Shown here: one piece after another, positions 3,001 through 40,711 of the stretch | How the letters are laid out: every line of letters starts with the position of its first letter | How positions within the stretch are numbered: position 1 is the stretch's first letter | Virus record (IMG/VR): IMGVR_UViG_3300032308_002246 | Span: 62,001-126,000 of that record | DNA from: a virus | Direction: 5' to 3' (one strand) | DNA: 64,000 bases | Program-made: the position numbers and the translations under genes | Notes under the pieces: model-generated | The model's database searches: none | Seen by the model: only the letters and a program-made list of their open reading frames with translations | Told to the model about the DNA's origin: nothing

Positions 3001-4254
3001 AAAAGAAGCAAGAGAATCGCCGGATTTCAAAAAATCAACCATCTGTGTTGCGTAGTCAAAACCTATGTTGCTTGGAACATTGTGATTTCCATAATTTGGA
3101 TACAGCCCAGTAAGTGCTGACATCCTTGCGTTTAGTCCATCTTCTATTGATATAGAAGCTATTTTCTGATACTCATTTAGAGCCGCATCAAAATCAATTT
3201 CTTCTAAATCAGATGACCTGAGCTTTTGTAGAAATAGTGATGAAAGTTGTTCAAATTCAGTGTCCCACCATTCTGTGGCTAATTTTGCGGTTTCTTCATC
3301 AAAAAGTTGCCTTGCAAGCCCCTCTCGTCCAATGATTGTTTTGAGTTTTGCAAAATTGGCTTCGTCTACTTCTGCTTTTGTTTTTTCAATATATCTTTCG
3401 TAGAAACCAGACCCTTCTGCGTCTGGTCCGAATATTACTTCTAGTATTTTTTTTCTTAATTCTGAATCTTCTGGGAGGTCAATCTCTCTTGGGACTTCGC
3501 TCATGTAGGAGCCGTATTTTCTTTCACCTACTGACTTGTGTTTCAAAGAAACTGCACCTATAGGGCCACTTGGTTTTTCTTCAGTCGCTTTCGGTGCTGG
3601 GCGAAGCCTATTTGACTCTTTTGGAGCTCTTGGTCTTTCTGTGGCCGATGCTTTGGGTCTTGGGGTTTTATCAATGCTTACTTCTGGCAGTGGCGGGGTT
3701 ATTCTTGGCTGTGGTTTAACAACATCCTGAAGGTTGGTAGTTGCTGCATCGGTAGTAGCTTCAATCTGATTGCCCCCTGGGGTAGGGTCTGGAATTCCGC
3801 GGCCAAAATTTACTTCAGCTACACCCTCAAGAACCAACTTGTCTTTATCTGCGTCGACAGCCGTATTCGGGTCCATATTTCTTGGAGCAACACCAATTGG
3901 CTGACCAACATTTGGTCCAAGGGCTTTTTCTTCTAGTTCTTTTTTGTTGATTACACGTCTTACTCTCTGAGCAAAATCTCTGTCTTGGTTTCTTCTACCA
4001 AGAGGGCTCGCCCCAGTGACTCTTCTATAGTCAGACTCGTTGGTGCATGGCATCCACAGGTATCCGCCAGTGGTTGAGTTGTACTGTCTGACCCCAATGC
4101 ATCCAAGCTGTCTTGCCCTTTGCCTAGCTGATTCTTTATCTGTAAATGAGTCAATAGAGCCTGGTCTTATTGCTCTTGAGCCAAAGCTAAGAGACTTTTC
4201 TTGGTTCCCATTTTCTATTGGGCAACAGTCGCCCTGCTCAAAATCGTTGGTCAT
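1..4254 (-). CDS. Giant phage protein, partial (C-terminus beyond window edge)
   Basis: The minus-strand frame is open without a stop from an ATG at 4254 to base 1, giving at least 1418 residues; the C-terminus is missing. A good ribosome site (GAGGG) lies just upstream of the ATG. I recognise no catalytic domain. Visible modules are a Cys pair C52/C70 ending in WMPC, shared with the protein encoded just upstream; an acidic EF-hand-like loop (DADKDKLVLEG, about residue 130) followed by a DPTPGG linker; a Pro/Arg/Lys-rich linker (about 165-225); and four GPxGxM-type motifs at about residues 230, 977, 1153 and 1301. The rest is mostly predicted helical and charged. It is the last visible gene of the leftward cluster, 65 bases after its neighbour. 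It resembles the other large proteins of the cluster and is probably a virion-associated cargo protein, but no function can be assigned. Confidence 0.85.
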   Translation of the reverse strand, partial: MTNDFEQGDCCPIENGNQEKSLSFGSRAIRPGSIDSFTDKESARQRARQLGCIGVRQYNSTTGGYLWMPCTNESDYRRVTGASPLGRRNQDRDFAQRVRRVINKKELEEKALGPNVGQPIGVAPRNMDPNTAVDADKDKLVLEGVAEVNFGRGIPDPTPGGNQIEATTDAATTNLQDVVKPQPRITPPLPEVSIDKTPRPKASATERPRAPKESNRLRPAPKATEEKPSGPIGAVSLKHKSVGERKYGSYMSEVPREIDLPEDSELRKKILEVIFGPDAEGSGFYERYIEKTKAEVDEANFAKLKTIIGREGLARQLFDEETAKLATEWWDTEFEQLSSLFLQKLRSSDLEEIDFDAALNEYQKIASISIEDGLNARMSALTGLYPNYGNHNVPSNIGFDYATQMVDFLKSGDSLASFGAKAIVESMQDATIEYDFPSYRVFGEKDEEGRLTDLTRHQMFRSLVGFAEKTRELSDEQAGTQLDKSLLGSVFNAFAMSMFMRGGMPTFNEAYETYLPNLAANEDSSVAMLRFAEIADALDTALVDHKEALRRARSEVIASNPELALDKTQERLSQETDLNLPIENSEFVKNIDSRDNVKITSRLAVLSKLSDDELIGFAEELGRRGIARRKNQAISFLDEMQPLSLDGAFETAQRITGLSNGKINFTDLAGALYTQNFFDGWMNRDGVSQTWESYLKFSKNSRTYNALKKMTPEKRAKFLGLDEATTEMLMDSAQENLLRWTDDEEVISADLLQTLKDMNMLLKDTEFESDSKNSTPHQNHAMQFGNSITKAVSHPIEQFISALNLRDMQLEEIWENTHTNSTKLAIDGLLGDSTEGAKNTAFKIASLLLPETRVSQIGEREDAFGINDAGVIASRRLKLNRYDQKGRSFIDLAIVADAQDNSGKQTVLERHEHLINSLGIIGTAIRTLGAYGDEINTIATNVKQIKNSVASEILEENGESFSELVDNYMDAAPFAWGPSGAMANRSGFEYPRERRQSGSWSPLANYAQSSMYLDYKNRKNRRNLDIANSVDANQNEVFEEISELMLTLRERVSNNTLKLSDYAKSYDQKTGVLSLDFYNPRKPTSALGDSPGLIKSITMLLAVAAANARNNRERSQAREILNELLDWAELYLPEYSKIRPRNDKALSDMLENGPIGKIGIEQAYAAIENKKHKTLKGRLRDFENKSQTIVFDSIADRNPASKLRELESELDEIVSEGWMNNRVLAGLFETISGHMDDAFEEGISERTRNRMRPIFDGFANAMRAKYDKDYAEAFGMINLDAIQRKRRRIAARSAQEVSDSSPVGRMGAGYSPQRLQLAENNKDSHLTEEFKKRWADIDESNITANEILNSKNPSLTMFDGNNLAFYWKDENSRLKYLQTANKRKLGKGYVGLPSSFGISSSFQKVKELNDSGLLEKIG

Positions 4255-12992: not shown

Positions 12993-15900
12993 TTACATCC
13001 CTTCGCCGTTTCCGGTAGCCCATTCAATCATTCTTGAGTGAAGTCTATCAAGAAGGTCTTTCTCCTGTTCTGAGAACTGCGAAAGACCACCAGCATCCTC
13101 GAGCGTCTTTGCAACATGCAACTCTGCGTACCCTTCTGCGTTTGATGCAACATAGTTTTTTGCTGGCTTTGTGCCTGGATAGTATGCCGGCCCTGCATAA
13201 ATGGATATGTAAGGCAAAAGTGCAGAGATTGCACTAATTTCATCATCTGAAAAGTTTTTCCATCCATTGTTGTTTTGTTTATTCATCAGCTCGTTCACAT
13301 ACATCAACAATCTCTGATAAAGAGCATCATCATTTACTTTTTCAATTACGGACGCAACATATTTGGCTTTGTCAAACTTTCCATTTTGGTCAAACCAGCT
13401 GTTTTTTCCGTATACATTTCCTGCAAAATTCTGCATAAACTCGTCAACTGCATTTTTATTCCCGTTTAGGATATCAGTCAAGAGATAATGCATTCTGTCA
13501 AAAGCAAATGTTTGGTTGTTTAGCCACTTTAAAATTGGAACTAGGTTCTGCAGTTTGTTTTGGAATGCTTCCATCATCAGTTGTGCTTGGACAAGCTGAT
13601 TATCCATTATTTCTAAAGTTTCTTTCATTGACTGAAGCTTTTCAAGTGCATCGTCTTGACTTGGTGCCATTATCGAATTCAAAATTGAATTTATTACAGA
13701 TTCAAGACCTGCTCCAGAGTTCAGAGCCTCGTCAATGCCGCTTCTTATATCCAGCTCGCCAACACCAGACATTGATGAAGAAACGGTTTCCTCAAAGGCT
13801 TTTATACTTGCCGCAAGCTCGTTTCTTTGTTCAATCATTTGCGGGATGTCTTGCAACATTCTCTCGTGGGATATCTTTGACTGAATGGCGTCCATAACTT
13901 GTTCAACAACAAATTTTGTAGCGTACATATCTGCAATATCATTCACGAATGGTGAGCTCATCCCAGATTCAATCGCCGAAAGTTCAGCTACTGCAAGCCT
14001 AAATTCTCTTGCTGAATTGAGTCCATTTCCAGAGTTTTTGTTTGCCGCATTTGGAGAATTGCGCCAATCTCCAACACCATCAAGCAAATGTCCAAATTCA
14101 TGAACTCCAACCAAGAATGTAGAAACTTTCAACATTTCGTCAAAACCCTCAATTGCTTTGTTCGTTGCATTTGAGACTATTTGGTTTCTTAGTGCTGGTT
14201 TTTGTTTTGCAAGATTCATTGCTTCTTCGTAGTTATTTGCTATTTCTTGCGAAAGCTGAGATACGGCAGTTGTAATTGTCGTATCCATAATCCCACCGGA
14301 CGAAGCTCTCTTGTTGGTCGCCATTTCAAGCATTTCGTTTATTACGGCATCAACAACTCCGTTTGGAATTTCTTCAAGCTGTAATGAAATAGGTCCAATT
14401 CCAGGAACGAAGAATTCTGGATTCTTCCCCTGATTGTAAGGTATTGATGGGAGCGAAAGCTGTATTGACTTACTGGCTCGACGAAGCTTTGGGTTTATTG
14501 ATACGCCGACTTGGGTCATGTCGTCTAACCCAACTTGAGATACAAGAACACGACCCTCTAGGCCGGGCAGTGATGGATTCTGTCTAATACCCTGAGCCCC
14601 AAGGCCAGCCCTGTTTAGTGTGAACTCCATGAATGTTGGGAGTATTCCAGTTGTCCCTCCTGGAGCGTTTGCAGCTGGTTGGTCGGGCATGTTCAGTGAG
14701 TTAAAGTCCAAAAATACGTCTTTAAATGCTGCCGGATATTCAATTAGGTGATGCATCAATGCGTAGTATGCGCCAAGTTCAGCTGGAGATATAGGAGTGT
14801 CTGGTCCGGAGTATCTTCCGCCAAGAACCTCTTGCAGGGCACCCATTGACGAAAGCACAAAATAGGACGGGGAAACCTCAGTGTTTATCCCAGCATTATT
14901 CATCGTCTCAACAATTGTTTCAATATTTTGAATTGCGTGCCTAATTTTTTTAGGTTTTCCTGGGAAAAATGAATCGACTTTTGCTTCTATCTCATTAATT
15001 TTTTGCCTTAGACCGTTAATATCGTAGAGCCAATCGTTTTCGGTTGGTCTTGGAAGTGGATAGTTCTCAATTTTCCCAAGTGGCCCAGCTGCGTTTTCTC
15101 TCTCAGATGCAATTGTGGATATTGATTGAACAGCCGAGATTCTTTTTTCTGGTTTTTGTTTTTTTAACTTATTTCTTCTTGTGCGTCTATTTTCTATGTT
15201 TGGAGAAAATGAATCCCGCGCTGCTGTATTGGTAGCTGCACGTATTGCCCCAACTGGCGAGCTAGGTCGTTCGTGTATTGTTGCATCCTGAACGCTTCCG
15301 TCGTTATCGCCATCATATGCATTTGCTCTAAATGGCTCAATTCTTCTGCCACGTGATGAACCGATTGGACTTCCAAGTGCTTTTATAGATGACTTGCCTA
15401 CAAAACTTGATATTGATTTTGCTTTAACATTGTTATAGTTATGGAACTTGCTAGGTGCAAGAATCAGGGCCGTATTTCTGACATTTACATTAAGGTGCTT
15501 GAAGTCGTAGGCGTTACTATTCCCTGGGTTCATAAAAGCTTGCTGCACGCGTTCTTCTCCAAGAAAAAGACCCAGTATGTCAATTATTTCACTTTCTGTG
15601 TAATTGGAAAAGTTTGTATTTTCTGATGAATTTAGCCATCTCTTTATTTGTTGAACTCCGTCTCCAGAGAAAACAAAAGCTCCTAATTCGGCCATCGCTT
15701 CATTTGTGCTGCTCTGTCCATATGAGGTTCCAAGTATGTTGTTTATAAGCGCCCATAGTTCTGGTGATGCAACAGCATCTCTAGGTATGGCTCTAAAAGA
15801 CGGGTCTTGTTGTCCAAATGCATTAATAAAAGCTTCGTACCACCAATCAAAATCACCATTTATTCCACGAGCACCCAATGCATCTTTTACGCTATCAAGA

Positions 15901-18239
15901 ACATCCTGTATTGCTCTTTTTGTAAAGCCTTTATTTTTGGCCCATCTCTCGTAAGCTTCTCTTAGTTGCTCTGAATTTGTGTAGTTTTCCATGTACCACT
16001 GCATGATTGTCGAAGCTTTTTCTATATCGTCCCTAGCCGCTCCAACCCTTAGGTCAAGATTTCTTAATTGTGCAGCAAGAATGCTGTCTGGATTGTACGA
16101 TGCAAGTGTGCGGAAATTTAGTGGCTGTCCACTTGAGAGTATTTCCTGCCATTGTTCCTTATCTATCCCAGCTATTGTTCTTATTCTGTTGTAGTAATCA
16201 TTTATATGGTTGAGCTCATGGTCCATCAAGTCCTGTATGAACTGTGATGTTGTTTTTGGTTTGCCATTTACAAAAAAATGGTCTCCTACCGAATTCATAA
16301 AATCCCATAAATTCTCTTCTTTAAAGAGGTCTGGATTTAAAACAAAAACACCATAAGCAGGTGGGTTTAGTTCAGACATTATTGCGCGCAGTGCTTTTGG
16401 ACTTTTTGTTTTCAATCTTTCTAGCTCAGTGTCAATATCGGAGGCAGAAATACCTGGATTCATACGTGAAATATAGTTAATCAATTGAGCATCAAGTATT
16501 TCTGATTCTGCAGATGTCAGAGTTCTGTTCCCAACAATTGATGCTCCTCCGGATGATATTCCAAAAGAATCTGCAAAGTTGTCTGGGTCAATAGCATCTG
16601 GATTTCTAAAAGGGTTTTTTGTCCCAGGTATCATTGCGTACATTAGGGTATTTGGCTTGTACTGGTCATCAGGGTCCAAAATTCCCTCTTGGTTTTTAAA
16701 TTCTTCACTTGAGCCCCAGTACATCCTTAGAGGTATTACTGAAACATCCTCCATTTCTGCAGATGTATCTTGGATATGTATTGAATACGCATCAAGAATA
16801 TCCATTATTGATTCTTCTAGAAGTTTTAGCCTTCTGTCGCTTATTGGGGTTTCTAGTTGTCTTTCAAGTGCTCTTCTTCTTGCTTCTCTTACTGCAGATT
16901 CAGAAACTCCACGGTTCATTAATTGCGAAACTTCTTGGTCGTATCCAAGTAATGTAACTTCAATATTTGTTAAAGGCCTAAAGCCACCAGCTCCATCCGG
17001 AACCACCAGCTGTTGCAGTGTTCCACCAATCATCACCGGAGATGCTTGTTCAAAAAATGTAGTGTCCAGCCTTATGTCGGGTAGGCCTTTTGCCCGACGT
17101 CTTGAATTTATTCTTTCTTCAAGGTCGGAAAGAGCTCGACGCGCAGTTTCAAGAGACTTGTCAAGTCCGCTTCCAGGCATACTTTTTTGAGCAATTTTTA
17201 AATTAGATTTTGCTTTTTCGTATCTAGCTCTTTTGCGGGCTTGTCTTTCTTTTATGTTTGTGCGAGGTATCAACCTTGTAAGACTGCTTACAATTGGTGG
17301 AAACATCCTTCCAATTGCAGAAGACTCAGGCGCATCGGCTCCAGATGCGATAACCGAGCCGTCATCTGTAAATAGGCTTAATGTGTTCTTATCGTATCTA
17401 AGAGGCCTAATACTGCTTGGCATTGAATCAAAAACTGCTGACAATTTTCTAAACTTTGGAACTTCCGGAATTTTATCGTTGTTTAGTTTTGCAACAGCAG
17501 AGCCAACCGAGCCATCTGGTCCATCTGGTGAACCAGGTATATCGCAACCAATTCCAAAAATATTCGTAAATCTATTTGCCCCTGGATTTCCGGGGCCGCA
17601 TCTAAGTTTGTTCTTGCCGTCAAGATAAAGGCCTCTTGCGTTAGCCGCAAGGCCCAAAAGCGACTCGCTGAATTCTCTCAAGGAACGTCCGAGCAGTCCT
17701 TTTTCGGATTCGTTTTTTACCTTGCGCGGGTATTGCATTTTAAACTTGTCTGTTGGCAGTGGGAGATATTTGATTATGTCGTCTAGCTCTTCAAACCTCA
17801 TGTCGTCAATCGGAGTTCCACCTCCATAGTTGTGACACATTCTCATGGATAGACCAGGAGGCATGGCTGGAAGGTCGTCGCCAGGTTTCCATTGTTTGGC
17901 CCACTTAAAGAACTCTGACTCAGGATATGCAGGAACTTCTTTTTTGGGCTTTGATGCCTTAAAATTTATTTGCTTATCAGGTTGTCTCCACCAACTGTCA
18001 AGACTCTTGCCTCTGTATGCAATGATTGCATTTGTTGCCCACTCGGAGTTGTGCCCACCAAATTCTGTAATTGAAACAGATTTCAGTTGAATTTCGTCAG
18101 ATGCTTCAGCTTTCCTTAAATTTCCAGTAGTCGAGTTATAGACAAAACGCCCGCCACTAGGTGTTTGATACATGAATGAGTTGCCATTTTTTGCAACAAT
18201 TCTTGCATTTAGTGGAATGTTTTGGCTTTTGTCGCCCAT
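12993..18239 (-). CDS. Giant protein with two zincin metallopeptidase-like domains
   Basis: The 1748-residue protein contains two HEXXH zinc sites. The first is HELNH (674-678) with NEAMAEL about 170 residues later (E851). The second is HEFGHLLD (1380-1384) with GYAEL near the C-terminus (E1706). Each pair fits a gluzincin-type layout (His, His, Glu), but in the second a predominantly helical, coiled-coil-like insert of about 250 residues separates the parts. Other modules are the RCGPG...RFTN...GC Cys pair (C214-C232), a basic region (about 320-375), an EF-hand-like loop DGDNDGSVQD (about 970-980), and two motifs, SPVGAI (about 994) and GPLGKI (about 1052), that separate the two zincin halves. 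No signal peptide or transmembrane segment is seen. Such metallopeptidase modules are known in phage polyvalent proteins delivered to hosts; target and activity here are unknown. The ATG is preceded by AGAAAG; 68 bases separate it from the upstream gene. Confidence 0.85.
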   Translation of the reverse strand: MGDKSQNIPLNARIVAKNGNSFMYQTPSGGRFVYNSTTGNLRKAEASDEIQLKSVSITEFGGHNSEWATNAIIAYRGKSLDSWWRQPDKQINFKASKPKKEVPAYPESEFFKWAKQWKPGDDLPAMPPGLSMRMCHNYGGGTPIDDMRFEELDDIIKYLPLPTDKFKMQYPRKVKNESEKGLLGRSLREFSESLLGLAANARGLYLDGKNKLRCGPGNPGANRFTNIFGIGCDIPGSPDGPDGSVGSAVAKLNNDKIPEVPKFRKLSAVFDSMPSSIRPLRYDKNTLSLFTDDGSVIASGADAPESSAIGRMFPPIVSSLTRLIPRTNIKERQARKRARYEKAKSNLKIAQKSMPGSGLDKSLETARRALSDLEERINSRRRAKGLPDIRLDTTFFEQASPVMIGGTLQQLVVPDGAGGFRPLTNIEVTLLGYDQEVSQLMNRGVSESAVREARRRALERQLETPISDRRLKLLEESIMDILDAYSIHIQDTSAEMEDVSVIPLRMYWGSSEEFKNQEGILDPDDQYKPNTLMYAMIPGTKNPFRNPDAIDPDNFADSFGISSGGASIVGNRTLTSAESEILDAQLINYISRMNPGISASDIDTELERLKTKSPKALRAIMSELNPPAYGVFVLNPDLFKEENLWDFMNSVGDHFFVNGKPKTTSQFIQDLMDHELNHINDYYNRIRTIAGIDKEQWQEILSSGQPLNFRTLASYNPDSILAAQLRNLDLRVGAARDDIEKASTIMQWYMENYTNSEQLREAYERWAKNKGFTKRAIQDVLDSVKDALGARGINGDFDWWYEAFINAFGQQDPSFRAIPRDAVASPELWALINNILGTSYGQSSTNEAMAELGAFVFSGDGVQQIKRWLNSSENTNFSNYTESEIIDILGLFLGEERVQQAFMNPGNSNAYDFKHLNVNVRNTALILAPSKFHNYNNVKAKSISSFVGKSSIKALGSPIGSSRGRRIEPFRANAYDGDNDGSVQDATIHERPSSPVGAIRAATNTAARDSFSPNIENRRTRRNKLKKQKPEKRISAVQSISTIASERENAAGPLGKIENYPLPRPTENDWLYDINGLRQKINEIEAKVDSFFPGKPKKIRHAIQNIETIVETMNNAGINTEVSPSYFVLSSMGALQEVLGGRYSGPDTPISPAELGAYYALMHHLIEYPAAFKDVFLDFNSLNMPDQPAANAPGGTTGILPTFMEFTLNRAGLGAQGIRQNPSLPGLEGRVLVSQVGLDDMTQVGVSINPKLRRASKSIQLSLPSIPYNQGKNPEFFVPGIGPISLQLEEIPNGVVDAVINEMLEMATNKRASSGGIMDTTITTAVSQLSQEIANNYEEAMNLAKQKPALRNQIVSNATNKAIEGFDEMLKVSTFLVGVHEFGHLLDGVGDWRNSPNAANKNSGNGLNSAREFRLAVAELSAIESGMSSPFVNDIADMYATKFVVEQVMDAIQSKISHERMLQDIPQMIEQRNELAASIKAFEETVSSSMSGVGELDIRSGIDEALNSGAGLESVINSILNSIMAPSQDDALEKLQSMKETLEIMDNQLVQAQLMMEAFQNKLQNLVPILKWLNNQTFAFDRMHYLLTDILNGNKNAVDEFMQNFAGNVYGKNSWFDQNGKFDKAKYVASVIEKVNDDALYQRLLMYVNELMNKQNNNGWKNFSDDEISAISALLPYISIYAGPAYYPGTKPAKNYVASNAEGYAELHVAKTLEDAGGLSQFSEQEKDLLDRLHSRMIEWATGNGEGM

Positions 18240-22577: not shown

Positions 22578-23078
22578 CTATTTACTTCTGTTTTTCCATT
22601 TTTCCGGAATCATGTCTTGCCGCCCCAAAGATATGGCTCTTTTTATTATGTGCTTTTTTGCTCTGGCCTTGTTTTTTGCTCGACCATAAGCATAAATTGC
22701 GTTCTCTAAATCTGATTCATTTTCAATTGGGTATGAGCCATCAGGTAATGCCATCCCGGTTTTTGCAAGCTTTTCACGTGATTCTTCGCTGAACAATCTT
22801 TTTTCATTTAAGTAAGAAAGCTCGTTCAATTTATTCACAAGTTCGTCAACCAAAAGTGGACCCATTGATTTAGCGTCAACAAGCACTACGCCTTTTTCGT
22901 TTGCAGATGACTCAAATCCGTATTTTTCTAGAATTTGGTCAACTTCTGTTTTGAGATTGAATATCTCCGACAATTCACTTTGGATAACAATTTCTTCTTG
23001 AAGCGTATTGTCAAGAGATTCAAGACTTTTTATTGACATTTCATATTTGTTTGTTTGAGTTGAAGTATATATTTTCAT
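22578..23078 (-). CDS. DUF6582-like C-terminal domain protein (166 aa)
   Basis: The N-terminal 100 residues are helical and charged. The C-terminal part (about 110-162) reads GSYPIENESDLENAIYAYGR followed by a KKHIIKRAISLGR helix and IPEKW. This is the motif I associate with the DUF6582 family and it recurs at the end of the 499-aa protein. The gene starts 6 bases after the giant protease gene, with GAGGG as ribosome site. In other phages this domain occurs on several head-region proteins, so a recruitment or packaging role is conceivable but unproven. Confidence 0.85.
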   Translation of the reverse strand: MKIYTSTQTNKYEMSIKSLESLDNTLQEEIVIQSELSEIFNLKTEVDQILEKYGFESSANEKGVVLVDAKSMGPLLVDELVNKLNELSYLNEKRLFSEESREKLAKTGMALPDGSYPIENESDLENAIYAYGRAKNKARAKKHIIKRAISLGRQDMIPEKWKNRSK

Positions 23079-23084
23079 ATGAAA

Positions 23085-26000
23085 TTACCCTCTATCTCGT
23101 GGAACCGTGATTCCAGGTATGTTGTATCTTGGGAAGTTGGATGAGTAAAGCCTTGTTGGGTCCTCAAGTGACACTCCGCTTCTCGTCTTTTCCATTGCAT
23201 CAATCTGTGAAACACCATCAACATCTCTGTTCTCAAGCATTTGCCTTCTGAGTTGCAGATAGAACCAGTTCCTTCGTTTTTGAAGCTTTGGAAGGTAAGA
23301 CACAAGCTTTCTTACTTCGGCTTTTTTCTTATCACGAGCATCTCCAGCATGTGTCCTCATTCTTGACAAATACTCAAGTCTTCCGATGATTGTGTCAAGG
23401 GCTGCGTCTGAAGCTGTCCATCCAGAGAAAAGCATGTATTCAGAAGCTTCTTCGGCACCACCATATGGAAGAACGGCATCACCTTCTTCGTACTCTCTTA
23501 TGGCGGCTTCCGCGTTGCCCTTTGTCACTCTTGCACCATTTCTTCTAACTGGGTCATTTGATACATATCTGCTCCCAGGTATTCTTCTCATTTCCCCAGC
23601 TGGCCCATCGTCAAATGGGAGTTCTGGCTGTTCGTTTTCAAAAACCCCAGATTCAATGATTGGGTTCTGGGGTTGCTCTTGTCTTTGTGGTGGGTTTTGT
23701 GAAGAAACCCGTGATGGGGCGAATGGATTAAATGTTCTGTCGTTTCTGTCCATTCTCTTAGCACCACTAAGAGCCTCAAGCCTGCTGTCAAAAGGACGGC
23801 TAGCCGTAACATTCCTGTTAGCCGTGTCAATTATCACCCACTTGCCATCTTGGGTTGGTTTTATGTCGTATCTTTGCGGAACAAAACGTCTGCCCATTGC
23901 GCCAACAGGACCACCATCGCCGCCGTCAGAACCATATGGAGGACTGTTGAACAACTTGTTAAGTTCTTCAATTTCACGCGCAGTGTCTACGTCAATGTCC
24001 GGTTCAGTCGTTTCTTGACCATATGAGAAATAACCAGCATAAGGTCCGCCAAGGTCATCTATTTCTTCTACTGAGCGTTCATTGCCATTTGCATCGTAAA
24101 GTATGTTCTTGTTTCTTTCGGTTGCTGATTGGAACCAATCAGAAAATCCATCTCCAAGCTCTGCTCTTCTTCTTGCAATAAGTCTCTCAAATGTCTTGCG
24201 TCTATCGTTCTGAATCATCCGCTCAGCTCTCTCAAACGGGGTCATCAAAGCTGCCATACGTGCCTCAAGTATTTCTTTACCCTTTTTGGAGTAATCAACA
24301 ACTTGATTTGCAGATATATCTAAATCTCCGGCGACAGAAAGAATATCGTAAGGCATTCCATCCATCTCGCCCATTTCATCTCCACTCATTTGTGAGTCAA
24401 ATATTCTTTGCGTGAGGTAGTGATGAATATCAATTAAGTCATCGTCTGTCGGATTTTCCCAATCCCTGTCTTCAATCGTAGAAAATCTTTTTCCAATTTG
24501 TTCTGCAACAATTTTCCAGTTGTCGTCGCCGTAAACCTCGTAGAGCCTTCTGTCAACATGCCTACTACCGCTAATTGGGTTTTCAGGCATTGAACCAGAA
24601 GACATAAGCCCAACTGGACCTTGAGGGGGATTCTGTTGTATTTCTCTAATCGCGGCTTGTGCGTCTTCTGAGTCAAAGTATCTTCTTTGAATTTCTCTAC
24701 CAACAGATTTTAGCTCTTTCATAATTGCAGATTTAGCGGCTCTGTCTTTTCGATGCGGTCTTCCATATGAACCGAATAGCTTTTCCATTGCATCGTTCCA
24801 TGCGCTCACAAGTTCATCATCAGACATATCTGAAACATTTTTGCCAGACATTGCCCCAATAGGTCCAAAATCATCATAAGAAAGATTCATCTCCCTGTAG
24901 GCATAGTCTATATTTTTAATCAACTGCCTTGGGCTCATGTCTGAGTCAATGCGCATTTCAAGTTCATCAAATGTAATGTCTCCAGATTCAAGCTGACTTA
25001 TAATTTCATCAACGGCATCAAGTGAGCGTATTTCATTTGCTCTTTCTCTATCTACAACATTTAGTCTTCGTCTTATATTTTGCTGACTGGTTGAATGTCT
25101 CTGAGCAAGCTGCGCTATTGCTTGTCCCTCTGGCACCGATGAAAGCAAATCTGTCAATTCGTTGTAAATCTGAATGTTGTATGAATCGTCAATTTTTCTT
25201 TCTTCTGTATCTCTAGGTCTTACATACCTTCCCATTTTCCCAAAAGGAGAAGAATTCATTTCTGGGTCAAATGGCATTGTCCCAGAAATCTCGTATTCAC
25301 CATTTTCAAGCCTCGTAATAGAAACACCAAACTCATCCACATATGGACCATTTGCAGTTTTCATTATTCTCTCAAGTGCGGCGTATCTGTCTAAGACATC
25401 GTTAAGCTGCGAGTCATTCCTGTTAGCAGAATTAAGTATTCTAGAAAGCAATCTTTGCGATTCAGCTTTTCTTTGTGCATTCGGCATTGACGCATATGTT
25501 GAATCGTGCTTATTTGGTTTCCAAAATTCAGTTGGAGAATAGTTTGGAACACGTGCGGCGTTCAATCCCAGTGAACCAACCGGGCCGGTATCAAAGCTAT
25601 TAATTTGATTTTGTCTACTTGCTCTAGCAAGTTTTTCTTTGGCTCTGTTGTAGGCTGCAATATCTGAAGCACTTGACACCGCAAAACTTCTTCTGTCTCC
25701 GCCAATTCGACGGCTCAATTCATCTAGTGAATACGGCAGAGATGTTGGTATTGGTTCTGCAGTTGACCTAACGGCAATCATGTATGGGTCAAATATCTTT
25801 CGTTGGCCATCTGCTTTGTCTGTTGCATGTAGAGATACATTGCCGTCTGCATTTTTGACAAACTTGACAAGTTCAACTGCGTAAACTTTATTTCCGTATG
25901 GGAACTCTGCGTCAATCACATCCCTGTCTGCTGTTGCCAGCGTATTTGCAACGGTTCCTTGATTATCGTCAAGAGATATGAACAAAGTTCTGTCTCGTGC

Positions 26001-29000
26001 ACCCCTTCTGAGCGCAGTTGTCTGAGCAACGATATCAGCAGTTCTTTTCTGCCTCTCTGTTTGTCTTTCCTTTGGTCTGGCTTGCTCCTCACGTGGTGGA
26101 GTTCTTTCTTGCTGACCGGGCTGTTCCTCTCTTGGTCTTCTGTTGCCTGAATCCTCTTCAGTGGGTCTGCTAGTTGATTCATTGCGAGGTCTGCGTTCAC
26201 CACGTGGTTCTCTGCGTGGTCTTCTTTGACCCGTCTCGTCTTGCGCCTCCGCCTCTGGTTTTGGTTTCTCAGACTTTCTTCCGTACATTCTGTCAGTTCT
26301 AAAATTCTTTTCCTTACCGTCTTTTTCATCAATGCCGACGATGTATGCGCCAAGAAGTTCGCCGTCTCTGCCAAAACGCTCTTCGTATCTTGGTTCGGTA
26401 ACTGTTCTTTTTTCTGGTCTGTCTGCATCTGGTTTTAGATATTCAAAAGAAATTCCAAGACCGGAATCGCTTGCATCATTTACTGCTTTTTTGATGTCTG
26501 ATTCGGTGAAGTTTTTGCCAAGTATTATTTCGGTATCTGTTTCAATAACAGGAGCAGATGAGTCAGAGCCAAGACCATAAAGGCCAAGCTTTTCATATTC
26601 CGCTTTTATCTCTTGTGCAGTTACTGTTTCCCCAGCCTTTGTCCTTATGTCTGCTTCAATTTCCCATGGCTTTGCCGAAATGAATACGCCATCTGTTGCT
26701 GGATGTCTTCCTCTTTGGGTTCTAATCTTTTCTGTAGTTTCATCAAAGATTTCACCAAGTTCTTCTTGTGGCCAGTCTTCATATGAGAACAGGTCCCCAG
26801 CTACTGGGTGATTCCATTTGACCAGATTGCCATTGTCGTCTTCTGCAACCAAAAATACTGGACCAGTAGAGTTTGAACCAACATTCTTGTGTTGATACTT
26901 AGTTATCTCTCCGGTCAACTTGTTTACATATGTAGAAACAAATTTTCCATCGTCTTCAACTTCTGATTTGTCTATGGCCGGTTCGCTAACTCCAACTGTT
27001 GGAGAGCTTGGTCTTGTAGAAGTTTGTCCAGTTTGTCTGGCAGCACGATTTTCTGCCATTCTTTGTTTTGTTAGGTTTCGTAGTCTGTCCCACTGCTCAG
27101 GCATCAAGCCACCATCAATGTCGTACCTATACAGAATTTTTTCAATCTCTGCATCATCCTGTTCAAGCATTCGTGCAGCATTTACTAAACGTTTTGCATC
27201 TTCTGGGTCTGCGCCAAGCAGTTCTCCAGTTTCCTTATTTACTTTAAGTACAGCTTCTTCTCCTGGCGCAAGAGTGTATCCACCATCTCCGCTTTCGAAC
27301 TTGTCAATCAATGACGATGCGTAAGACCACTGTCTATCTGAAAGACCGCCATTTTTTGCGTACTGGTAGTACATGTCGCTTAGAACTGAATAGTTCTTTT
27401 CTGGGCCAGTAAGGTCTTTTTTATCTTTTGAGTTTACTGTTGCTCTAAGAGCATCAAAATCTGGACTATTTCTAAGCGTGTGAATTTTTTCTATCACCGA
27501 AGGACCGAAGTCTGGAGTGTTTGGACTTTTAGTAACAGACAAGTCATCGCTACCTTGGAATCGCCACTTCCATGAGTCCATGGTCCAGAATTTTTCATCA
27601 GGTCCACTTTCAAGTCTTCTTAACTTTTTATTTCTGGCTACTCGTTTTGCATTTCTTTCATCCTCATCCCAGCTCTCAGACATATCAGAAGTTGCAAAAA
27701 CTGTACCGCCGAGCCTGAAGTAGGAAGGCTCGCCATCGTATCCAGCGCGGTCATTCCAAGAAACAACTCTCAAACCTTCTCTTGGAGAAGTTTGAATTGG
27801 TATAGGACGCAATTCTTCAGTTCCATCTGAGTTAAGGAATAAACCTTGTGGAAACATTTCATCGTCAAGGAACATTCCACGCTCAGCAGCTCTAGCCATT
27901 GCCTGAGCCTCAGTTTGAGTAACAAATGAATACTCTGGAGTATCAACAACCATGTAGTTGTATCCACCATCTTCTGCCAAAAGTTTTCTGCCCAACATTT
28001 CGTGCAGTTCTGGTTGGTTGAATCCACGCACTCTGCGGAGGTATGGCTTCTCCTGCATTGGAACACCGTCGGCAAGGTCTTCTGTAAAGTCGTATTCTTC
28101 TACTATTCCATCGTCTGCATTGGCATAAATTCGTACTTTTTTGTTCTGTCGAATCGCCATTGCACCAATCGGACCATCTGAAAGGTATTCGTTTATTTCA
28201 TTGTCTAGTTCTGTCTTGCCTATGTATTTTCTATACAGGCTGCCGTCGCTTGCATCTGCTTCAACAAAAAATCCTTCGTCGTCAACTCCGTATCTGGTGT
28301 TTGAAACGGATGGCGGCTTTGACGTTGAGCCATCTGCTTTTCTTAGAGTGCGCAAAGACTTTGTCAACCTTGAATCAACATCGTCAATTCTTAAATTGAA
28401 ATCTTTTGCAATATCTGCATTTGTTGCGCCGTAGAGTTTTTGAGACATTATGTCTCTATCTGTTCCATCAAGCAGGTAACCGTGTTCTCTCATCAGGTAG
28501 CGCATCTCAGAGCGCTCTGGGGTCTCTGTAGCAGAGAGAATGGTTGCTTGTGCTTTTACAATCTTTACAACATCATTTCTTGAAATATCGTTGTCTTTTG
28601 CTATTTGCTCAATTGATGAATTTCCAAAACTTGAGTAAACATTTCTCATCAGCTTTTCTGGGTATGAACTCTCTTCATTGTTGTCATTGCTGATGATTCT
28701 GTTTATTGCTTTTACTGCACCAGAAGGACCGTCTGGAGCGTTGATGCCGGAATAGGGTTCTCCGGTTACCGAGAAGTTACTCAAAAAGCTGTTTATTATG
28801 TTTGGAAGATACTCGTCAAGCTCTGCGTCATCAGAGTCGTTTTGTTTTAAGTAGCTCTTCTTACGACCGGTTGAGTCAAAAACTTCAGATGCAAAACCAT
28901 CCGGAAGAGCTCTTTCATACGAAGACATTCTGCCAACAGGGCCTGAGCCCAAACCTCTTTTGGCAATTTCTTTTCTTACTTCTTCTAATGTGTCTTCTCC

Positions 29001-32000
29001 AAGATTTGTTAGTGCAACTGCATAGTTGATTTCTTCTTGCAATTCAGAAACTTTTTCTAAATCTCTTTCAATTCTTGCAATTTTCTTACGCTCAAGTGCG
29101 TCCATGATGTCGTCTTTTATTTCTACAACATACTTATCAAACTTTTGCAGATTTTTTAAAAGTGATTCATCGCTGAGCTTTGGAATTTCTTCTTTAATTT
29201 TTCTGCCAGCTATAGAAGAAATTTTTCTCATTTCTTCTGCTGTATCTATGGAGTCAAGTAAATCAATATCTTCTTTTGTTAGTTCGTCAATCATTGCTCT
29301 CTGTAGAGAGTCGGCAAGCGCATTGTTGGCTTCATCCGAGCCCCTTGGGTACCCAGCAATAGTGTCTGTTTCAGGAGTTAGTTCAAGCCCACTTAGTCTT
29401 GGTCGCTCTGGTGATGGTGCTGCGTCTAGTCCTGTCCCACGAAGTCTTGGGCGCTCAGTCGGTGCTCCTGGTGTTATTGCAGTTCCACGCAATCTAGGTC
29501 TCTCTGCAGGGGTTTCTGTCGTTAAACCAGTCCCACGAAGTCGTGGTCTTTCTGGTGATGATTCTGGTGGAGAAACTCTTATTCTTGGTCTTTCTGTAGG
29601 TGTTTCTGCAGATGTTGTCGGTGGAGAAACTCTTATTCTTGGTCTTTCAATTCTTGATGCAGGGCTTCCGTCGCCACGGTCAAAAACTACACCATCTTCT
29701 CCATCATCAATTGAATCAAAAGATTCATCAAAACCATCAAAATCAACAAAGGAGTCTCCTGTCGACATTCTTCCAACAGGTGCGCTGTAGAAAATCCTGC
29801 TAAAAGGTTTATCTTTTAGAGTCCTATCTTGACCTTTTAAATCGTCGACAGACTCGGCTGCCCTTATTGACTCCGTCCATTTTGCATTGGCCATTGAGCC
29901 AACAGGCCCATTGTCAATCACCATGGAGTCTTGCAACTTTCTCATTGCAATCTGTTCTTGTCTTCTTACAGTTTGTCTATCTGTGCCAAGTCTTGCTGCG
30001 GCTTCTTGGAGAGTCTCCCCATCAAGTCTTCTCTTCATCAAATCTGTTTGTTCGTCGGTAAGAGTTGAAGCAGGGTCATCAAGCATTCTTCTTGTTACTC
30101 TGTTTGGACTGTTCTCATCCATGCCACGAAGTTTTGACATGTGTCTAAGCTCAAGCTGTCTTGCTTTTTGTCTTGAAACTTTGAATCTCGAAGCCGCTTC
30201 TTCAAGTGAAATTCCATCATTTTCTCTTGCAAGGAATATTTGTCGTCCAAGTTTTTCTTCTCTAAGAAGTCTTTTTTCTCTTGCTGTAAGAATCGAGTCG
30301 TTTGGCAAGGAAGACATTGCTCCACGTGGGGAATCAACATCAATTACTCCTGCTTCTTCAGGTCTCATTACATATGGGAGGTCTCTGTTATTTCTTCTTC
30401 CCATTTCATTTATGTATCTCTCAACGGTTCTAGGAGAAATTTTAAACTTACGGGCTACTTGTTCATAAGCTCTTTTTGTATTTTTATCTTTTGATACAGT
30501 ATTGAATTCATTGAATACTTTTTCCGCAGTATCCATGTCAACTGGTCGTTGGTCTTGTGGGAATCTTCTTCCATCAGCCATGCGACCTACAGGACCACTA
30601 GATGCTCTCTGTGGGACTCTTTGTGGAACTGGTGTTCTAGTTGGAACAGGAACTCTCTCAGGTTCTCTCTGTGGCACTCGTTCAGGAACTCGTTGCGGTT
30701 CTCTCTGTGGAACACGCTCAGGAACTCTTTCTGGTTTTCTTTCAGGAACAGTTGCTGGTCTTGCTGGTTTAATTGCTGGCTTGGCTGGTTGTACTTCTGG
30801 AATTTCTTCCGGAACTTCAACTGGTCTTGGGACAGCAGGCATGTCTGCTTCGCCAGGTCTCTTGGCGCGTCTTGGTTTAGATACGCCTCTCTTGCCTCGA
30901 GACCTTGGTGCTTTTGGGATATCAAAATCACTCCCAGGAGTTGGGTCAACTACGCCACGCCCTCTGTTGATAGTTGGAATTCCTTCAAGAACATATAGGT
31001 CGTTATCAGCGTTACGGGCAGTAAACGCATTCATATTTCTTGGTGTTCTCCCAATTGCATTACCAATAGCTTTTTGTTCAAAAGAATCCAATACATTTGA
31101 TAAAGCTTTATAAGCAGCAACACTGACTTTGTCAATGTCTGGAATAACAATTCCGTTTTCTAAAACTTTTACATCAAATGAATGGTATTCAGCAATTGTG
31201 TTGATTATTTCAAAAGCTTCAATTTTCTCTGCATTATCTTCTGGCTCCAAGAAAAGATGTTCGCCTCTATTTGCAGACTTAAACTCTTCAAGTGTGCTTA
31301 GATGATTTGGAACCGAGCATAATGTTTCACCTTTTGCGCAATCGTCACAACATGCTTCATGTGGAACAGCAGCCGAAGACATTGCGTCGTAAAGACTTCC
31401 ATTTGTTTGTGGCATGGATATGACCATTGCACTAGGTGTTCCACTGTCACCGATACGACTTCCGTTTGAATTATTTGTAGGTATATAGACGGTTTCTGGT
31501 TTTACTTGTTGCGCCGTTCCGAACATAAACTCATCACCATCAAAGTGGTAAGCGACTCTTAGTGTCTCAACAGCCTGACCGGCACCCATCTCAAAAATTG
31601 CAATGTCGTTATCGGCGTTAACTAGTCTTACCGCTCCGCCAAAGTGTGAAGCAAGTGCTCTTGTCAGGTCAGCCGCTCTTCCAACTACTGAGTTTTCTGA
31701 ACTGTTCATTGCCTCGTAAATTGCGCTTACATGGTTTTTTGTTTCCGAGCTTTCGCTGTCGTCTTTTTTCTTTGTATTGCTATAACGCTCAAGGAGTCTT
31801 CTTCCTTTTGCAGCAAGTTTTGCAGCGTCTTCCATATTCTTTGGAACTGGCTCACCCCATGCAGCCGCCGAAAGAGCAAGTCTTGTTGGTTCTCCATTTG
31901 GCTTTTTCATTGGGCCAGATGGGTTTGTAAAAAATCTTGTGAGAAATGAACCCTTGCGGCGCATCTTTTCTGGTGTGTCAGCTGGACCCTTAACGCCAGG

Positions 32001-32651
32001 CTTTAGATTTGCTCCTTCTGTTCTCTTGAAATGAGCACGACCGGCTGCGGTTAAACCGCCCTTTGGGTCTCTTAGCGGCTGACGTTTTACATCTATCCCA
32101 TCTTTGTTTTCGTTAACAGCTTCATCCGATTTTATTGAAATAGTGCCGGTCAGCTGGTTTGCTCCATGGAGAACAGGAGAAACTTCGTAAAGCTCAACTT
32201 CTTTTAAGAGATTGGCTTGCTGGGTTGGGTCAAAAACTGCATCAAGAGTTTTGTAGCCTATTGACCACTCCTGCTCAAGACCAAAGAATGACACATTTGC
32301 AAATGCCTCACGGCCTCTTTCGGCTTTGAGGTTAAATTGCACTCTTGCGTAAAGGCCACCTATTCCAGCCTTTCTCATCTTCGCAGGAAGACGAGGGTCA
32401 TTTGGACCAACTTCATAGATTTCTAAAACTTTGCCAATTGGCTCATTCCAATTGTGACCCCATACGACCCGAGGTTTTCTTCTTTTCAGGGAGTTCGTGA
32501 AACATCCTGGAAGGCAAATATCGCCGACGGAGTCCTTGTTGCCAACACCAGCAGCGAAGCACTCGACTATGCCAAGAGCCTCGTCAATATTGAATTGCCC
32601 TGTCAGGGACTTGTATTCGTAGTCAGCTGCTGTTTCGTGTGTGTTAGTCAT
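23085..32651 (-). CDS. HK97-type prohead protease fused to a giant HTH-rich polyprotein
   Basis: The start chosen is the ATG at 32651 behind AGGTGA; a GTG six bases upstream is possible. About 3188 residues. Residues 1-180 are a prohead protease of the HK97/U35 type: GHNW-PIG holds the likely catalytic His (H66) and WSIGY the Ser (S130). About residues 190-300 (GGLTAAGRAHFKR, MRRKGSF, LSAAAWGEP) resemble DUF6321. An EF-hand-like NADNDLYVLEG module lies near 545, then a Pro/Arg repeat linker (about 611-684). From there to the C-terminus, 13 motifs of the form [GSA]PxGx[MLV] occur at about 686, 774, 915, 957, 1237, 1308, 1493, 2356, 2468, 2596, 2678, 2914 and 3016. Between them are sigma-region-4/HTH-like helices (about 726-751, 814-842, 880-906, 1346-1373, 1409-1440, 2509-2538), six ERPR-x-R repeats (about 1005-1088), a WYL-like domain (about 2041-2121) and an Arg/Glu/Pro-rich linker (2128-2198). 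A normal prohead protease is about 200 aa, so the extension is extraordinary. Self-processing into separate DNA-binding proteins is inferred, not shown. Confidence 0.9.
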   Translation of the reverse strand: MTNTHETAADYEYKSLTGQFNIDEALGIVECFAAGVGNKDSVGDICLPGCFTNSLKRRKPRVVWGHNWNEPIGKVLEIYEVGPNDPRLPAKMRKAGIGGLYARVQFNLKAERGREAFANVSFFGLEQEWSIGYKTLDAVFDPTQQANLLKEVELYEVSPVLHGANQLTGTISIKSDEAVNENKDGIDVKRQPLRDPKGGLTAAGRAHFKRTEGANLKPGVKGPADTPEKMRRKGSFLTRFFTNPSGPMKKPNGEPTRLALSAAAWGEPVPKNMEDAAKLAAKGRRLLERYSNTKKKDDSESSETKNHVSAIYEAMNSSENSVVGRAADLTRALASHFGGAVRLVNADNDIAIFEMGAGQAVETLRVAYHFDGDEFMFGTAQQVKPETVYIPTNNSNGSRIGDSGTPSAMVISMPQTNGSLYDAMSSAAVPHEACCDDCAKGETLCSVPNHLSTLEEFKSANRGEHLFLEPEDNAEKIEAFEIINTIAEYHSFDVKVLENGIVIPDIDKVSVAAYKALSNVLDSFEQKAIGNAIGRTPRNMNAFTARNADNDLYVLEGIPTINRGRGVVDPTPGSDFDIPKAPRSRGKRGVSKPRRAKRPGEADMPAVPRPVEVPEEIPEVQPAKPAIKPARPATVPERKPERVPERVPQREPQRVPERVPQREPERVPVPTRTPVPQRVPQRASSGPVGRMADGRRFPQDQRPVDMDTAEKVFNEFNTVSKDKNTKRAYEQVARKFKISPRTVERYINEMGRRNNRDLPYVMRPEEAGVIDVDSPRGAMSSLPNDSILTAREKRLLREEKLGRQIFLARENDGISLEEAASRFKVSRQKARQLELRHMSKLRGMDENSPNRVTRRMLDDPASTLTDEQTDLMKRRLDGETLQEAAARLGTDRQTVRRQEQIAMRKLQDSMVIDNGPVGSMANAKWTESIRAAESVDDLKGQDRTLKDKPFSRIFYSAPVGRMSTGDSFVDFDGFDESFDSIDDGEDGVVFDRGDGSPASRIERPRIRVSPPTTSAETPTERPRIRVSPPESSPERPRLRGTGLTTETPAERPRLRGTAITPGAPTERPRLRGTGLDAAPSPERPRLSGLELTPETDTIAGYPRGSDEANNALADSLQRAMIDELTKEDIDLLDSIDTAEEMRKISSIAGRKIKEEIPKLSDESLLKNLQKFDKYVVEIKDDIMDALERKKIARIERDLEKVSELQEEINYAVALTNLGEDTLEEVRKEIAKRGLGSGPVGRMSSYERALPDGFASEVFDSTGRKKSYLKQNDSDDAELDEYLPNIINSFLSNFSVTGEPYSGINAPDGPSGAVKAINRIISNDNNEESSYPEKLMRNVYSSFGNSSIEQIAKDNDISRNDVVKIVKAQATILSATETPERSEMRYLMREHGYLLDGTDRDIMSQKLYGATNADIAKDFNLRIDDVDSRLTKSLRTLRKADGSTSKPPSVSNTRYGVDDEGFFVEADASDGSLYRKYIGKTELDNEINEYLSDGPIGAMAIRQNKKVRIYANADDGIVEEYDFTEDLADGVPMQEKPYLRRVRGFNQPELHEMLGRKLLAEDGGYNYMVVDTPEYSFVTQTEAQAMARAAERGMFLDDEMFPQGLFLNSDGTEELRPIPIQTSPREGLRVVSWNDRAGYDGEPSYFRLGGTVFATSDMSESWDEDERNAKRVARNKKLRRLESGPDEKFWTMDSWKWRFQGSDDLSVTKSPNTPDFGPSVIEKIHTLRNSPDFDALRATVNSKDKKDLTGPEKNYSVLSDMYYQYAKNGGLSDRQWSYASSLIDKFESGDGGYTLAPGEEAVLKVNKETGELLGADPEDAKRLVNAARMLEQDDAEIEKILYRYDIDGGLMPEQWDRLRNLTKQRMAENRAARQTGQTSTRPSSPTVGVSEPAIDKSEVEDDGKFVSTYVNKLTGEITKYQHKNVGSNSTGPVFLVAEDDNGNLVKWNHPVAGDLFSYEDWPQEELGEIFDETTEKIRTQRGRHPATDGVFISAKPWEIEADIRTKAGETVTAQEIKAEYEKLGLYGLGSDSSAPVIETDTEIILGKNFTESDIKKAVNDASDSGLGISFEYLKPDADRPEKRTVTEPRYEERFGRDGELLGAYIVGIDEKDGKEKNFRTDRMYGRKSEKPKPEAEAQDETGQRRPRREPRGERRPRNESTSRPTEEDSGNRRPREEQPGQQERTPPREEQARPKERQTERQKRTADIVAQTTALRRGARDRTLFISLDDNQGTVANTLATADRDVIDAEFPYGNKVYAVELVKFVKNADGNVSLHATDKADGQRKIFDPYMIAVRSTAEPIPTSLPYSLDELSRRIGGDRRSFAVSSASDIAAYNRAKEKLARASRQNQINSFDTGPVGSLGLNAARVPNYSPTEFWKPNKHDSTYASMPNAQRKAESQRLLSRILNSANRNDSQLNDVLDRYAALERIMKTANGPYVDEFGVSITRLENGEYEISGTMPFDPEMNSSPFGKMGRYVRPRDTEERKIDDSYNIQIYNELTDLLSSVPEGQAIAQLAQRHSTSQQNIRRRLNVVDRERANEIRSLDAVDEIISQLESGDITFDELEMRIDSDMSPRQLIKNIDYAYREMNLSYDDFGPIGAMSGKNVSDMSDDELVSAWNDAMEKLFGSYGRPHRKDRAAKSAIMKELKSVGREIQRRYFDSEDAQAAIREIQQNPPQGPVGLMSSGSMPENPISGSRHVDRRLYEVYGDDNWKIVAEQIGKRFSTIEDRDWENPTDDDLIDIHHYLTQRIFDSQMSGDEMGEMDGMPYDILSVAGDLDISANQVVDYSKKGKEILEARMAALMTPFERAERMIQNDRRKTFERLIARRRAELGDGFSDWFQSATERNKNILYDANGNERSVEEIDDLGGPYAGYFSYGQETTEPDIDVDTAREIEELNKLFNSPPYGSDGGDGGPVGAMGRRFVPQRYDIKPTQDGKWVIIDTANRNVTASRPFDSRLEALSGAKRMDRNDRTFNPFAPSRVSSQNPPQRQEQPQNPIIESGVFENEQPELPFDDGPAGEMRRIPGSRYVSNDPVRRNGARVTKGNAEAAIREYEEGDAVLPYGGAEEASEYMLFSGWTASDAALDTIIGRLEYLSRMRTHAGDARDKKKAEVRKLVSYLPKLQKRRNWFYLQLRRQMLENRDVDGVSQIDAMEKTRSGVSLEDPTRLYSSNFPRYNIPGITVPRDRG

Positions 32652-32709
32652 GGTCACCTAGTTATCAATGATAAACGAGTCGTATCTGTTTTTGTGAAGC
32701 TATTTGGTT

Positions 32710-40613: not shown

Positions 40614-40711
40614 GGCTGAGCAAGAAGAATAAAAAGCTGTTCCCAGAAAAACTTACGAACGACAAAAGCTATTCATTTTCAATACTCAAAAAGAAAAAGA
40701 AAAAGAAATGA
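40610..40711 (+). CDS. Lysine-rich micropeptide (33 aa)
   Basis: The ATG at 40610 overlaps the upstream stop (ATGA), and its own TGA overlaps the ATG of the ParB-like gene (ATGA). The peptide has about 15 lysines, begins MRLSKKNKKLFPEKL and ends in a run of seven lysines. Exact four-base overlaps at both ends support real, coupled translation. It may bind nucleic acid, or simply carry ribosomes to the next start. Confidence 0.55.
   Translation: MRLSKKNKKLFPEKLTNDKSYSFSILKKKKKKK

What the first reader, a model, noticed from the sequence alone, without database searches (positions are those of the whole stretch)
23085..32651. Prohead protease fused to a 3,000-residue extension divided by 13 copies of one short motif
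Seen: a complete HK97-type protease domain (about 180 residues, H66/S130) is the N-terminus of a 3,188-residue chain. The rest is punctuated by [GSA]-P-[VIFSARL]-G-x-[MLV] at nucleotides ~30579-30596, 30315-30332, 29892-29909, 29766-29783, 28926-28943, 28713-28730, 28158-28175, 25569-25586, 25233-25250, 24849-24866, 24603-24620, 23895-23912 and 23589-23606. Known: prohead proteases cut themselves and other head proteins at short specific sites during capsid maturation. Inferred: the motif is the cleavage site and the chain is a self-processing polyprotein whose pieces stay in the capsid. I know of no described phage with this architecture.
Basis: partly seen in the sequence, partly recalled or inferred. 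Interest (0 to 1): 0.88.

Follow-up and report, generated by a model that had tools for sequence, protein, structure and literature searches.

The report
Phage polyproteins with private protease-site code
An uncultivated phage seems to make about thirty head-cargo segments as a few giant chains, one of them fused to its own capsid protease, punctuated by a short motif that most likely is the protease's cutting site; whole sets of these sites change together from one phage lineage to the next.

Summary
Observation confirmed: all 13 motif copies lie at the stated coordinates in a 3,188-aa chain with an intact S78 prohead-protease domain (chance about 0.2-0.6 copies). At least one copy (GPSGAV) is probably chance.

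The reading as a protease-cut polyprotein is well supported indirectly and reaches beyond the finding. The motif also punctuates a 5,345-aa ORF running off the window and two neighbours: 33 hits in four ORFs, few elsewhere in the 174-kb genome. Its register, [VI]-G-x-M|[S/A/G], matches a known prohead-protease site (SPN3US: V-A-x-E|S). Segments between sites are unrelated to one another; the Pfam domains found in this genome's chains lie between sites; whole segments come and go in relatives. Related phages carry homologous modules in another order with their own site code (GPTASM, GPxAGM, [IV][ST]GxM, GLxSR). All sites of a lineage change together, as expected if one enzyme reads them.

Best explanation: giant polyvalent proteins, loaded into the prohead and cut by the prohead protease into cargo. 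Against: the capsid protein does not show the motif, nothing is experimental, and a docking motif or another protease is not excluded. I found no described phage with this architecture.

The parts
23085..32657 (-). Polyprotein 1 (P0001): prohead protease fused to a chain with 13 motif hits; 3,188 aa from the ATG at 32651
32139..32570 (-). Peptidase_S78 domain (residues 28-171), catalytic H66 and S130
31857..32072 (-). DUF6321 domain (residues 194-265)
30927..31082 (-). About 50-aa module shared by the four motif-bearing ORFs (residues 524-575); proposed targeting element (inference)
30579..30596 (-). First site, GPVGRM|A; cutting here would free a 691-aa protease piece
30315..30332 (-). Site SPRGAM|S
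29931..30065 (-). Sigma-70 region 4-like HTH cargo (residues 863-907)
29892..29909 (-). Site GPVGSM|A; aligned relatives read GPVGAM|A (L021) and EPTSSM|G (L023)
29766..29783 (-). Site APVGRM|S, left edge of a segment absent from L014 and L015
28926..28943 (-). Site GPVGRM|S, right edge of the same segment
28713..28730 (-). GPSGAV|K: probably a chance hit
   Evidence: judgement
28158..28175 (-). Site GPIGAM|A
25569..25586 (-). Site GPVGSL|G; aligned with GPTGSM|S in L023 and GPMAGM|S in L027
25233..25250 (-). Site SPFGKM|G
24849..24866 (-). Site GPIGAM|S; aligned with GPTAAM|S in L023
24603..24620 (-). Site GPVGLM|S; aligned with GPTASM|S (L023) and GPSAGM|S (L027)
23895..23912 (-). Site GPVGAM|G; aligned with EPTAAM|G (L023) and DPSAGM|A (L027)
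23589..23606 (-). Site GPAGEM|R; aligned with DPTAGM|S in L023
18308..20866 (-). Polyprotein 2 (852 aa): shared module, then sites GPVGQM (20636-20653), SPVGKI (19667-19684) and GPIGSM (18869-18886)
12993..18239 (-). 1,748-aa ORF with two HExxH zincin-like motifs, the shared module, and weaker sites SPVGAI (15243-15260) and GPLGKI (15069-15086)
1..4254 (-). N-terminal part of polyprotein 3 (5,345 aa, continues outside the window to genome 50217): shared module and hits GPIGAV (3550-3567), GPSGAM (1309-1326), GPIGKI (781-798), SPVGRM (337-354); its C-terminal segments carry Clp_N, Nudix and zeta-kinase domains

Best explanation
The phage makes its internal head cargo as giant polyproteins. A module of about 50 residues, found once in each of the four motif-bearing ORFs, directs them into the prohead (inferred). 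There the S78 prohead protease, itself the N-terminus of one of these chains, cuts after the motif [GSA]-P-[VI]-G-x-M and before Ser, Ala or Gly, in cis and in trans. This frees the protease and roughly 25-30 separate cargo proteins (HTH and sigma-r4-like proteins, a Clp_N protein, a Nudix hydrolase, a zeta-type kinase, many unknowns) for packaging and probably injection (inferred). Shown by sequence: the protease, the sites, their concentration in four head-cluster ORFs, the unrelated segments, segment gain and loss, and concerted site change between lineages. Inferred: cleavage itself, its timing, the role of the module, packaging and injection.
For: Enrichment: 13, 14 and 3 hits in three ORFs against shuffle means of 0.6, 0.7 and 0.1; only scattered hits in other ORFs. 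Register: of 22 hits ending in M, the next residue is A, S or G in 19, against a 22-24% background; P4 is mostly V or I and P2 is free. SPN3US gp245 cuts V-A-x-E|S in the same register (PMC10052503). No homology among 39 segments beyond the module and two very weak matches. Pfam domains of these chains lie between hits. Segment gain and loss next to sites: L014 and L015 lack residues 945-1245 (sites at 957 and 1237), L021 lacks the HTH segment and one site. Concerted change: homologous sites read GPVGxM here, GPTASM in L110 and L023, GPxAGM in L027, and Nudix and zeta modules sit among [IV][ST]GxM sites in L111, L123 and L137, while unrelated ORFs of one phage share one code. L188 has the same protease fusion with G[LF]xS[RH]. 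Stand-alone proteases of many relatives lose similarity to the chain just before its first site, and L074 has one site and one small cargo.
Against: No experiment. The major capsid protein, the expected main substrate of an HK97-type protease, has no GPxGxM; its cut point is unresolved. The hits in the 1,748-aa ORF are weak. The I-G lineages follow the small-residue rule only loosely (53 of 83, with R or K in 20). The structure model of one polyprotein stretch failed (pLDDT 33), so linker placement is not shown structurally.
Confidence: 0.72

Rival explanations
1. The motif is not cut. It is a repeated docking peptide in linkers that ties long internal proteins to the inner face of the capsid or to the scaffold, as cargo-loading peptides do in encapsulins (analogy from memory).
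For: A single capsid or scaffold partner would also make all motifs change together. The motif is short, hydrophobic and glycine-containing, and sits between domains.
Against: Does not predict the free position before M or the strong preference for S, A or G after it, nor the match to the SPN3US register. The ~50-aa module already offers a one-per-protein targeting element.
Confidence: 0.12
2. The motif is a cleavage site, but for another protease: a zincin-like domain of the 1,748-aa ORF or a host protease, in the head or after injection.
For: Zincin peptidases are the commonest peptidases of polyvalent proteins (PMC5512222); two HExxH motifs lie in a neighbouring ORF; the capsid protein lacks the motif.
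Against: The register matches a prohead protease, and the S78 protease is physically fused to the chain here and in L023, L027 and L188. A host protease would not explain lineage-specific codes well.
Confidence: 0.1
3. The motif is an inert linker sequence spread by recombination, in chains that work uncut, like the unprocessed N4 virion RNA polymerase.
For: Large phage proteins can be packaged uncut (N4, discussed in PMC5512222).
Against: Inert linkers should drift independently; here homologous sites are replaced in register by another lineage-specific motif while flanks diverge.
Confidence: 0.04
4. The motif is a conserved strand of one repeated folded domain.
For: None found.
Against: Segments range from 87 to 805 residues in polyprotein 3 and are not homologous to one another.
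Confidence: 0.02

Closest known systems
Polyvalent proteins of phages and conjugative elements (Iyer et al. 2017, PMC5512222)
   Same: Very long multidomain proteins encoded among head genes, made of effector-like domains, thought to be packaged and injected; some carry an assemblin-like peptidase thought to process them; zincin motifs also occur here.
   Different: [quoted passage not shown] here it is N-terminal. I found no mention there of a shared site code, of many sites per chain, or of concerted change of sites.
T4 internal proteins (IPI-III, Alt) with capsid-targeting propeptides cut by gp21 (PMC9026906)
   Same: Internal proteins carry a targeting element and are cut by the prohead protease before injection; the modelled protease domain matches T4 gp21 best together with herpesvirus proteases.
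   Different: T4 makes each as a separate gene with a short propeptide; here cargo is chained and the module is about 50 residues.
SPN3US gp245 prohead protease and its ejection proteins (PMC10052503)
   Same: Site register P4 V, P3 small, P2 free, P1 fixed, P1' Ser; cuts ejection proteins, several sites in one propeptide.
   Different: P1 is E, not M; substrates are separate proteins with N-terminal propeptides, and the protease is not fused to a cargo chain.
Annotated capsid maturation proteases of Gordonia phage DalanDe (gp27) and Microbacterium phage Cece (gp70)
   Same: Long head proteins annotated as capsid maturation protease; DalanDe's protease domain is about 40% identical and its capsid protein 49%.
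   Different: The DalanDe protease domain is near residues 1111-1296, not N-terminal, and neither protein shows a clear repeated site.

Membership tests
S78 / HK97-type prohead protease | Sequence match to the family above its curated cut-off | tested here: met
   Peptidase_S78 43 bits against a cut-off of 21; PHROG 80
S78 / HK97-type prohead protease | Catalytic His and Ser conserved | tested here: met
   H66 and S130 invariant in 49 of 49
S78 / HK97-type prohead protease | Assemblin-like fold | tested here: met
   Model matches T4 gp21 and herpesvirus proteases best, though E is only 0.02
S78 / HK97-type prohead protease | Encoded between portal and major capsid protein | tested here: met
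   Portal directly upstream; capsid protein downstream on the same strand but about 35 kb away
S78 / HK97-type prohead protease | Cuts the major capsid protein | tested here: inconclusive
   No GPxGxM in the capsid protein; candidate junctions do not match the code
Polyvalent proteins | Several unrelated effector-like domains in one polypeptide | tested here: met
   HTH, sigma-r4, Clp_N, Nudix, zeta-toxin kinase domains
Polyvalent proteins | Encoded among virion genes | tested here: met
   Between portal and capsid protein
Polyvalent proteins | Packaged and injected | not testable with these tools
   Needs virion proteomics
Polyprotein cut at defined sites | A shared site consensus between separable domains, read by one encoded protease | tested here: inconclusive
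   Consensus, placement and concerted change met; cleavage by this protease not shown

The most novel reading that the evidence does not exclude
A polyprotein strategy, familiar from RNA viruses, in tailed-phage heads: one prohead protease reads a private short code at some thirty sites in several giant cargo chains, including its own. The code is rewritten at all sites together as phage lineages diverge (GPVGxM, GPTASM, GPxAGM, [IV][ST]GxM, GLxSR), so cargo modules could be exchanged like cassettes within a lineage but would have to be recoded between lineages.
Probability: 0.6. Interest if true: 0.9.

Novelty: new variant of a known kind. Interest (0 to 1): 0.8.

Why it matters
It would show a cassette-like polyprotein system for loading many host-directed proteins into a phage head, and it gives a sequence handle (the site code) for dividing otherwise unreadable giant phage proteins into their mature products. 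The concerted drift of the code between lineages is a natural experiment on how a protease and dozens of its sites co-evolve. It also yields a testable list of candidate injected proteins in uncultivated phages.

Tried and rejected
Repeated-domain reading: rejected, segments are not homologous. Capsid-protein junction as proof of the site: M|S or M|T occurs at one candidate junction in this phage and its relatives L107 and L110, but L106 has V, most others have K, and the invariant NGANM is usually followed by Pro, so I do not use it. AlphaFold2 of the C-terminal 924 aa of polyprotein 3 from three sequences failed (pLDDT 33). A TAS-like repeat in Cece gp70 did not clearly exceed shuffles. Some regular-expression hits in polyprotein 3 (GPDGDL, SPVGAV) look like chance, judged by alignment. 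An IAGNM hit inside an HTH domain of L111 is probably chance. The paper library holds open-licence papers only; its searches found no description of this architecture. The one genome-contig scan gave three relatives, in contigs binned as Gammaproteobacteria and Phycisphaerae, which do not settle the host.

Full report
WHAT IS THERE. The window is 62001-126000 of a 173,962-base virus record. Its head genes run on the minus strand: a portal with a MuF domain (32742-34985), the finding's ORF (23085-32657), a 166-aa and an acidic 499-aa ORF, an 852-aa ORF, a 1,748-aa ORF, several others, a 5,345-aa ORF that leaves the window, and then the major capsid protein at genome 48550-49944, found through Gordonia phage DalanDe (49% identity). 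Terminase and tail genes run on the plus strand. A search for gapped triplets without any motif supplied finds P-x-G-x-M as by far the strongest pattern in the chain.

THE MOTIF IS NOT LIMITED TO THIS CHAIN. In the rest of the genome it is concentrated in three more ORFs: 14 hits in the 5,345-aa ORF, 3 in the 852-aa ORF and 3 weaker ones in the 1,748-aa ORF, against 0.1-0.7 expected in each. Other ORFs have only scattered hits. Not all hits need be real: in the finding's chain GPSGAV|K is doubtful, and in the 5,345-aa ORF GPDGDL and SPVGAV look like chance.

REGISTER. The 22 hits that end in M read [GSA]-P-[mostly V/I]-G-x-M, and the next residue is A (8), S (7) or G (4) in 19 of 22, against 22-24% A+S+G in these proteins. 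In two other lineages the count is 19 of 19 (P-x-A-x-M type) and, more loosely, 53 of 83 (I-S/T-G-x-M type, with R or K in 20). The SPN3US prohead protease cuts after A-x-E, with V preferred at P4 and S at P1', by mass spectrometry (PMC10052503). The two patterns can be laid on each other position by position: V-A-x-E|S and V-G-x-M|A/S/G.

SEGMENTS. All-against-all comparison of 39 segments finds no repeated domain, apart from a ~50-aa module and two very weak matches. Recognisable domains lie between sites: HTH and sigma-r4 domains in the finding's chain; Clp_N, Nudix and a zeta-toxin-type kinase in the 5,345-aa ORF, each in its own segment. In related phages a J-domain begins about 11 residues after a site. 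The ~50-aa module occurs once in each of the four motif-bearing ORFs and in no other ORF of this genome, upstream of the first convincing site. By analogy with the T4 capsid-targeting propeptides (PMC9026906) I propose that it is a targeting element; this is inference.

RELATIVES. One scan of viral contigs brought 80 relatives of the protease region, a second one 80 relatives of the capsid protein. Close relatives keep the array. L014 and L015 lack residues 945-1245 of the chain, close to one site-to-site segment with one site; L021 lacks the HTH segment and one site. More distant relatives keep homologous chains but with another code: L023 uses PT[AS][SA]M, L027 PxAGM, L110 PTASM, and L111, L112, L116, L120, L123, L130 and L137 use [IV][ST]GxM. 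At several homologous positions the motif is replaced in register while the flanks diverge. Homologous Nudix and zeta modules that are neighbours in this phage lie hundreds of residues apart in L111, L123 and L137, among that lineage's own sites. In the contig of L033 and L111 two ORFs share the ISGxM code. L188, a contig in a public metagenome-assembled genome, has the protease fused to a 2,698-aa chain punctuated by G[LF]xS[RH]. L074 has a single site followed by a single small HTH cargo. In many relatives the protease is a stand-alone gene whose similarity to the chain ends near residues 610-680, just before the first site at 686. By a conservative test, 28 of 608 distinct ORFs of 300 aa or more in the fetched loci carry a significant array.

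INTERPRETATION. Unrelated sites within one phage share a code, and homologous sites of different phages do not. That points to one reader per phage that acts on all sites. The register and the fusion make the prohead protease the likeliest reader and cleavage the likeliest act. A docking motif would also change in concert, but would not predict the free position before M or the small residue after it. The zincin-like motifs of the 1,748-aa ORF keep another protease possible. The capsid protein does not carry the motif, and I could not settle where it is cut. I put the cleavage reading at 0.72.

COMPARISON WITH WHAT IS KNOWN. Polyvalent proteins (PMC5512222) are the nearest described class, and these chains belong there by domain content and gene context. 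The reported examples with an assemblin-like peptidase have it at the C terminus. T4 and SPN3US show that prohead proteases process injected internal proteins from separate genes. I found no description of a prohead protease fused to a multi-site cargo polyprotein, nor of lineage-specific site codes, in the open-licence library. Annotated phages held here have no detectable relative of the chain beyond its first site. I therefore rate it a new variant of a known kind.

LIMITS. All evidence is sequence comparison. The host is unknown. Most relatives are fragments, so one contig seldom shows both the protease and all chains. Some site assignments are judgement calls.

Noticed in passing
window 20881-22380 and 22578-23078 (-): A very acidic, Met-rich 499-aa protein and a 166-aa protein share a C-terminal domain that also ends the long protease proteins of DalanDe and Cece; possibly scaffold-like.
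   Followed up: partly
window 12993-18239, 9915-11978, 5588-9988 (-): Three long ORFs share a short Cys-containing stretch of the type C-P-x(n)-FTN-x-(F/Y)-x(n)-C near their N-terminal thirds, perhaps another common packaging module.
   Followed up: no
window 4320-5153 (-) and N-terminus of the 5,345-aa ORF: Both carry a DUF3721-like stretch (GC.GA...WMPC); Pfam reports it for the 5,345-aa ORF, the other was seen by eye.
   Followed up: no
window 32742-34985 (-): Portal protein with a C-terminal MuF domain in one chain.
   Followed up: no
window 40708-42650 (+): ParB-like gene directly followed by a PAPS-reductase-like gene, a pairing that might concern DNA modification or defence.
   Followed up: no
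L188 9956-18049: Protease-fused 2,698-aa chain on a contig binned as Phycisphaerae, with a different repeated motif G[LF]xS[RH] and a duplicated module preceded by that motif.
   Followed up: partly
L074 9977-12187: Protease with one site (GPTGAM|S) and one small HTH cargo: a possible minimal form of the architecture.
   Followed up: partly
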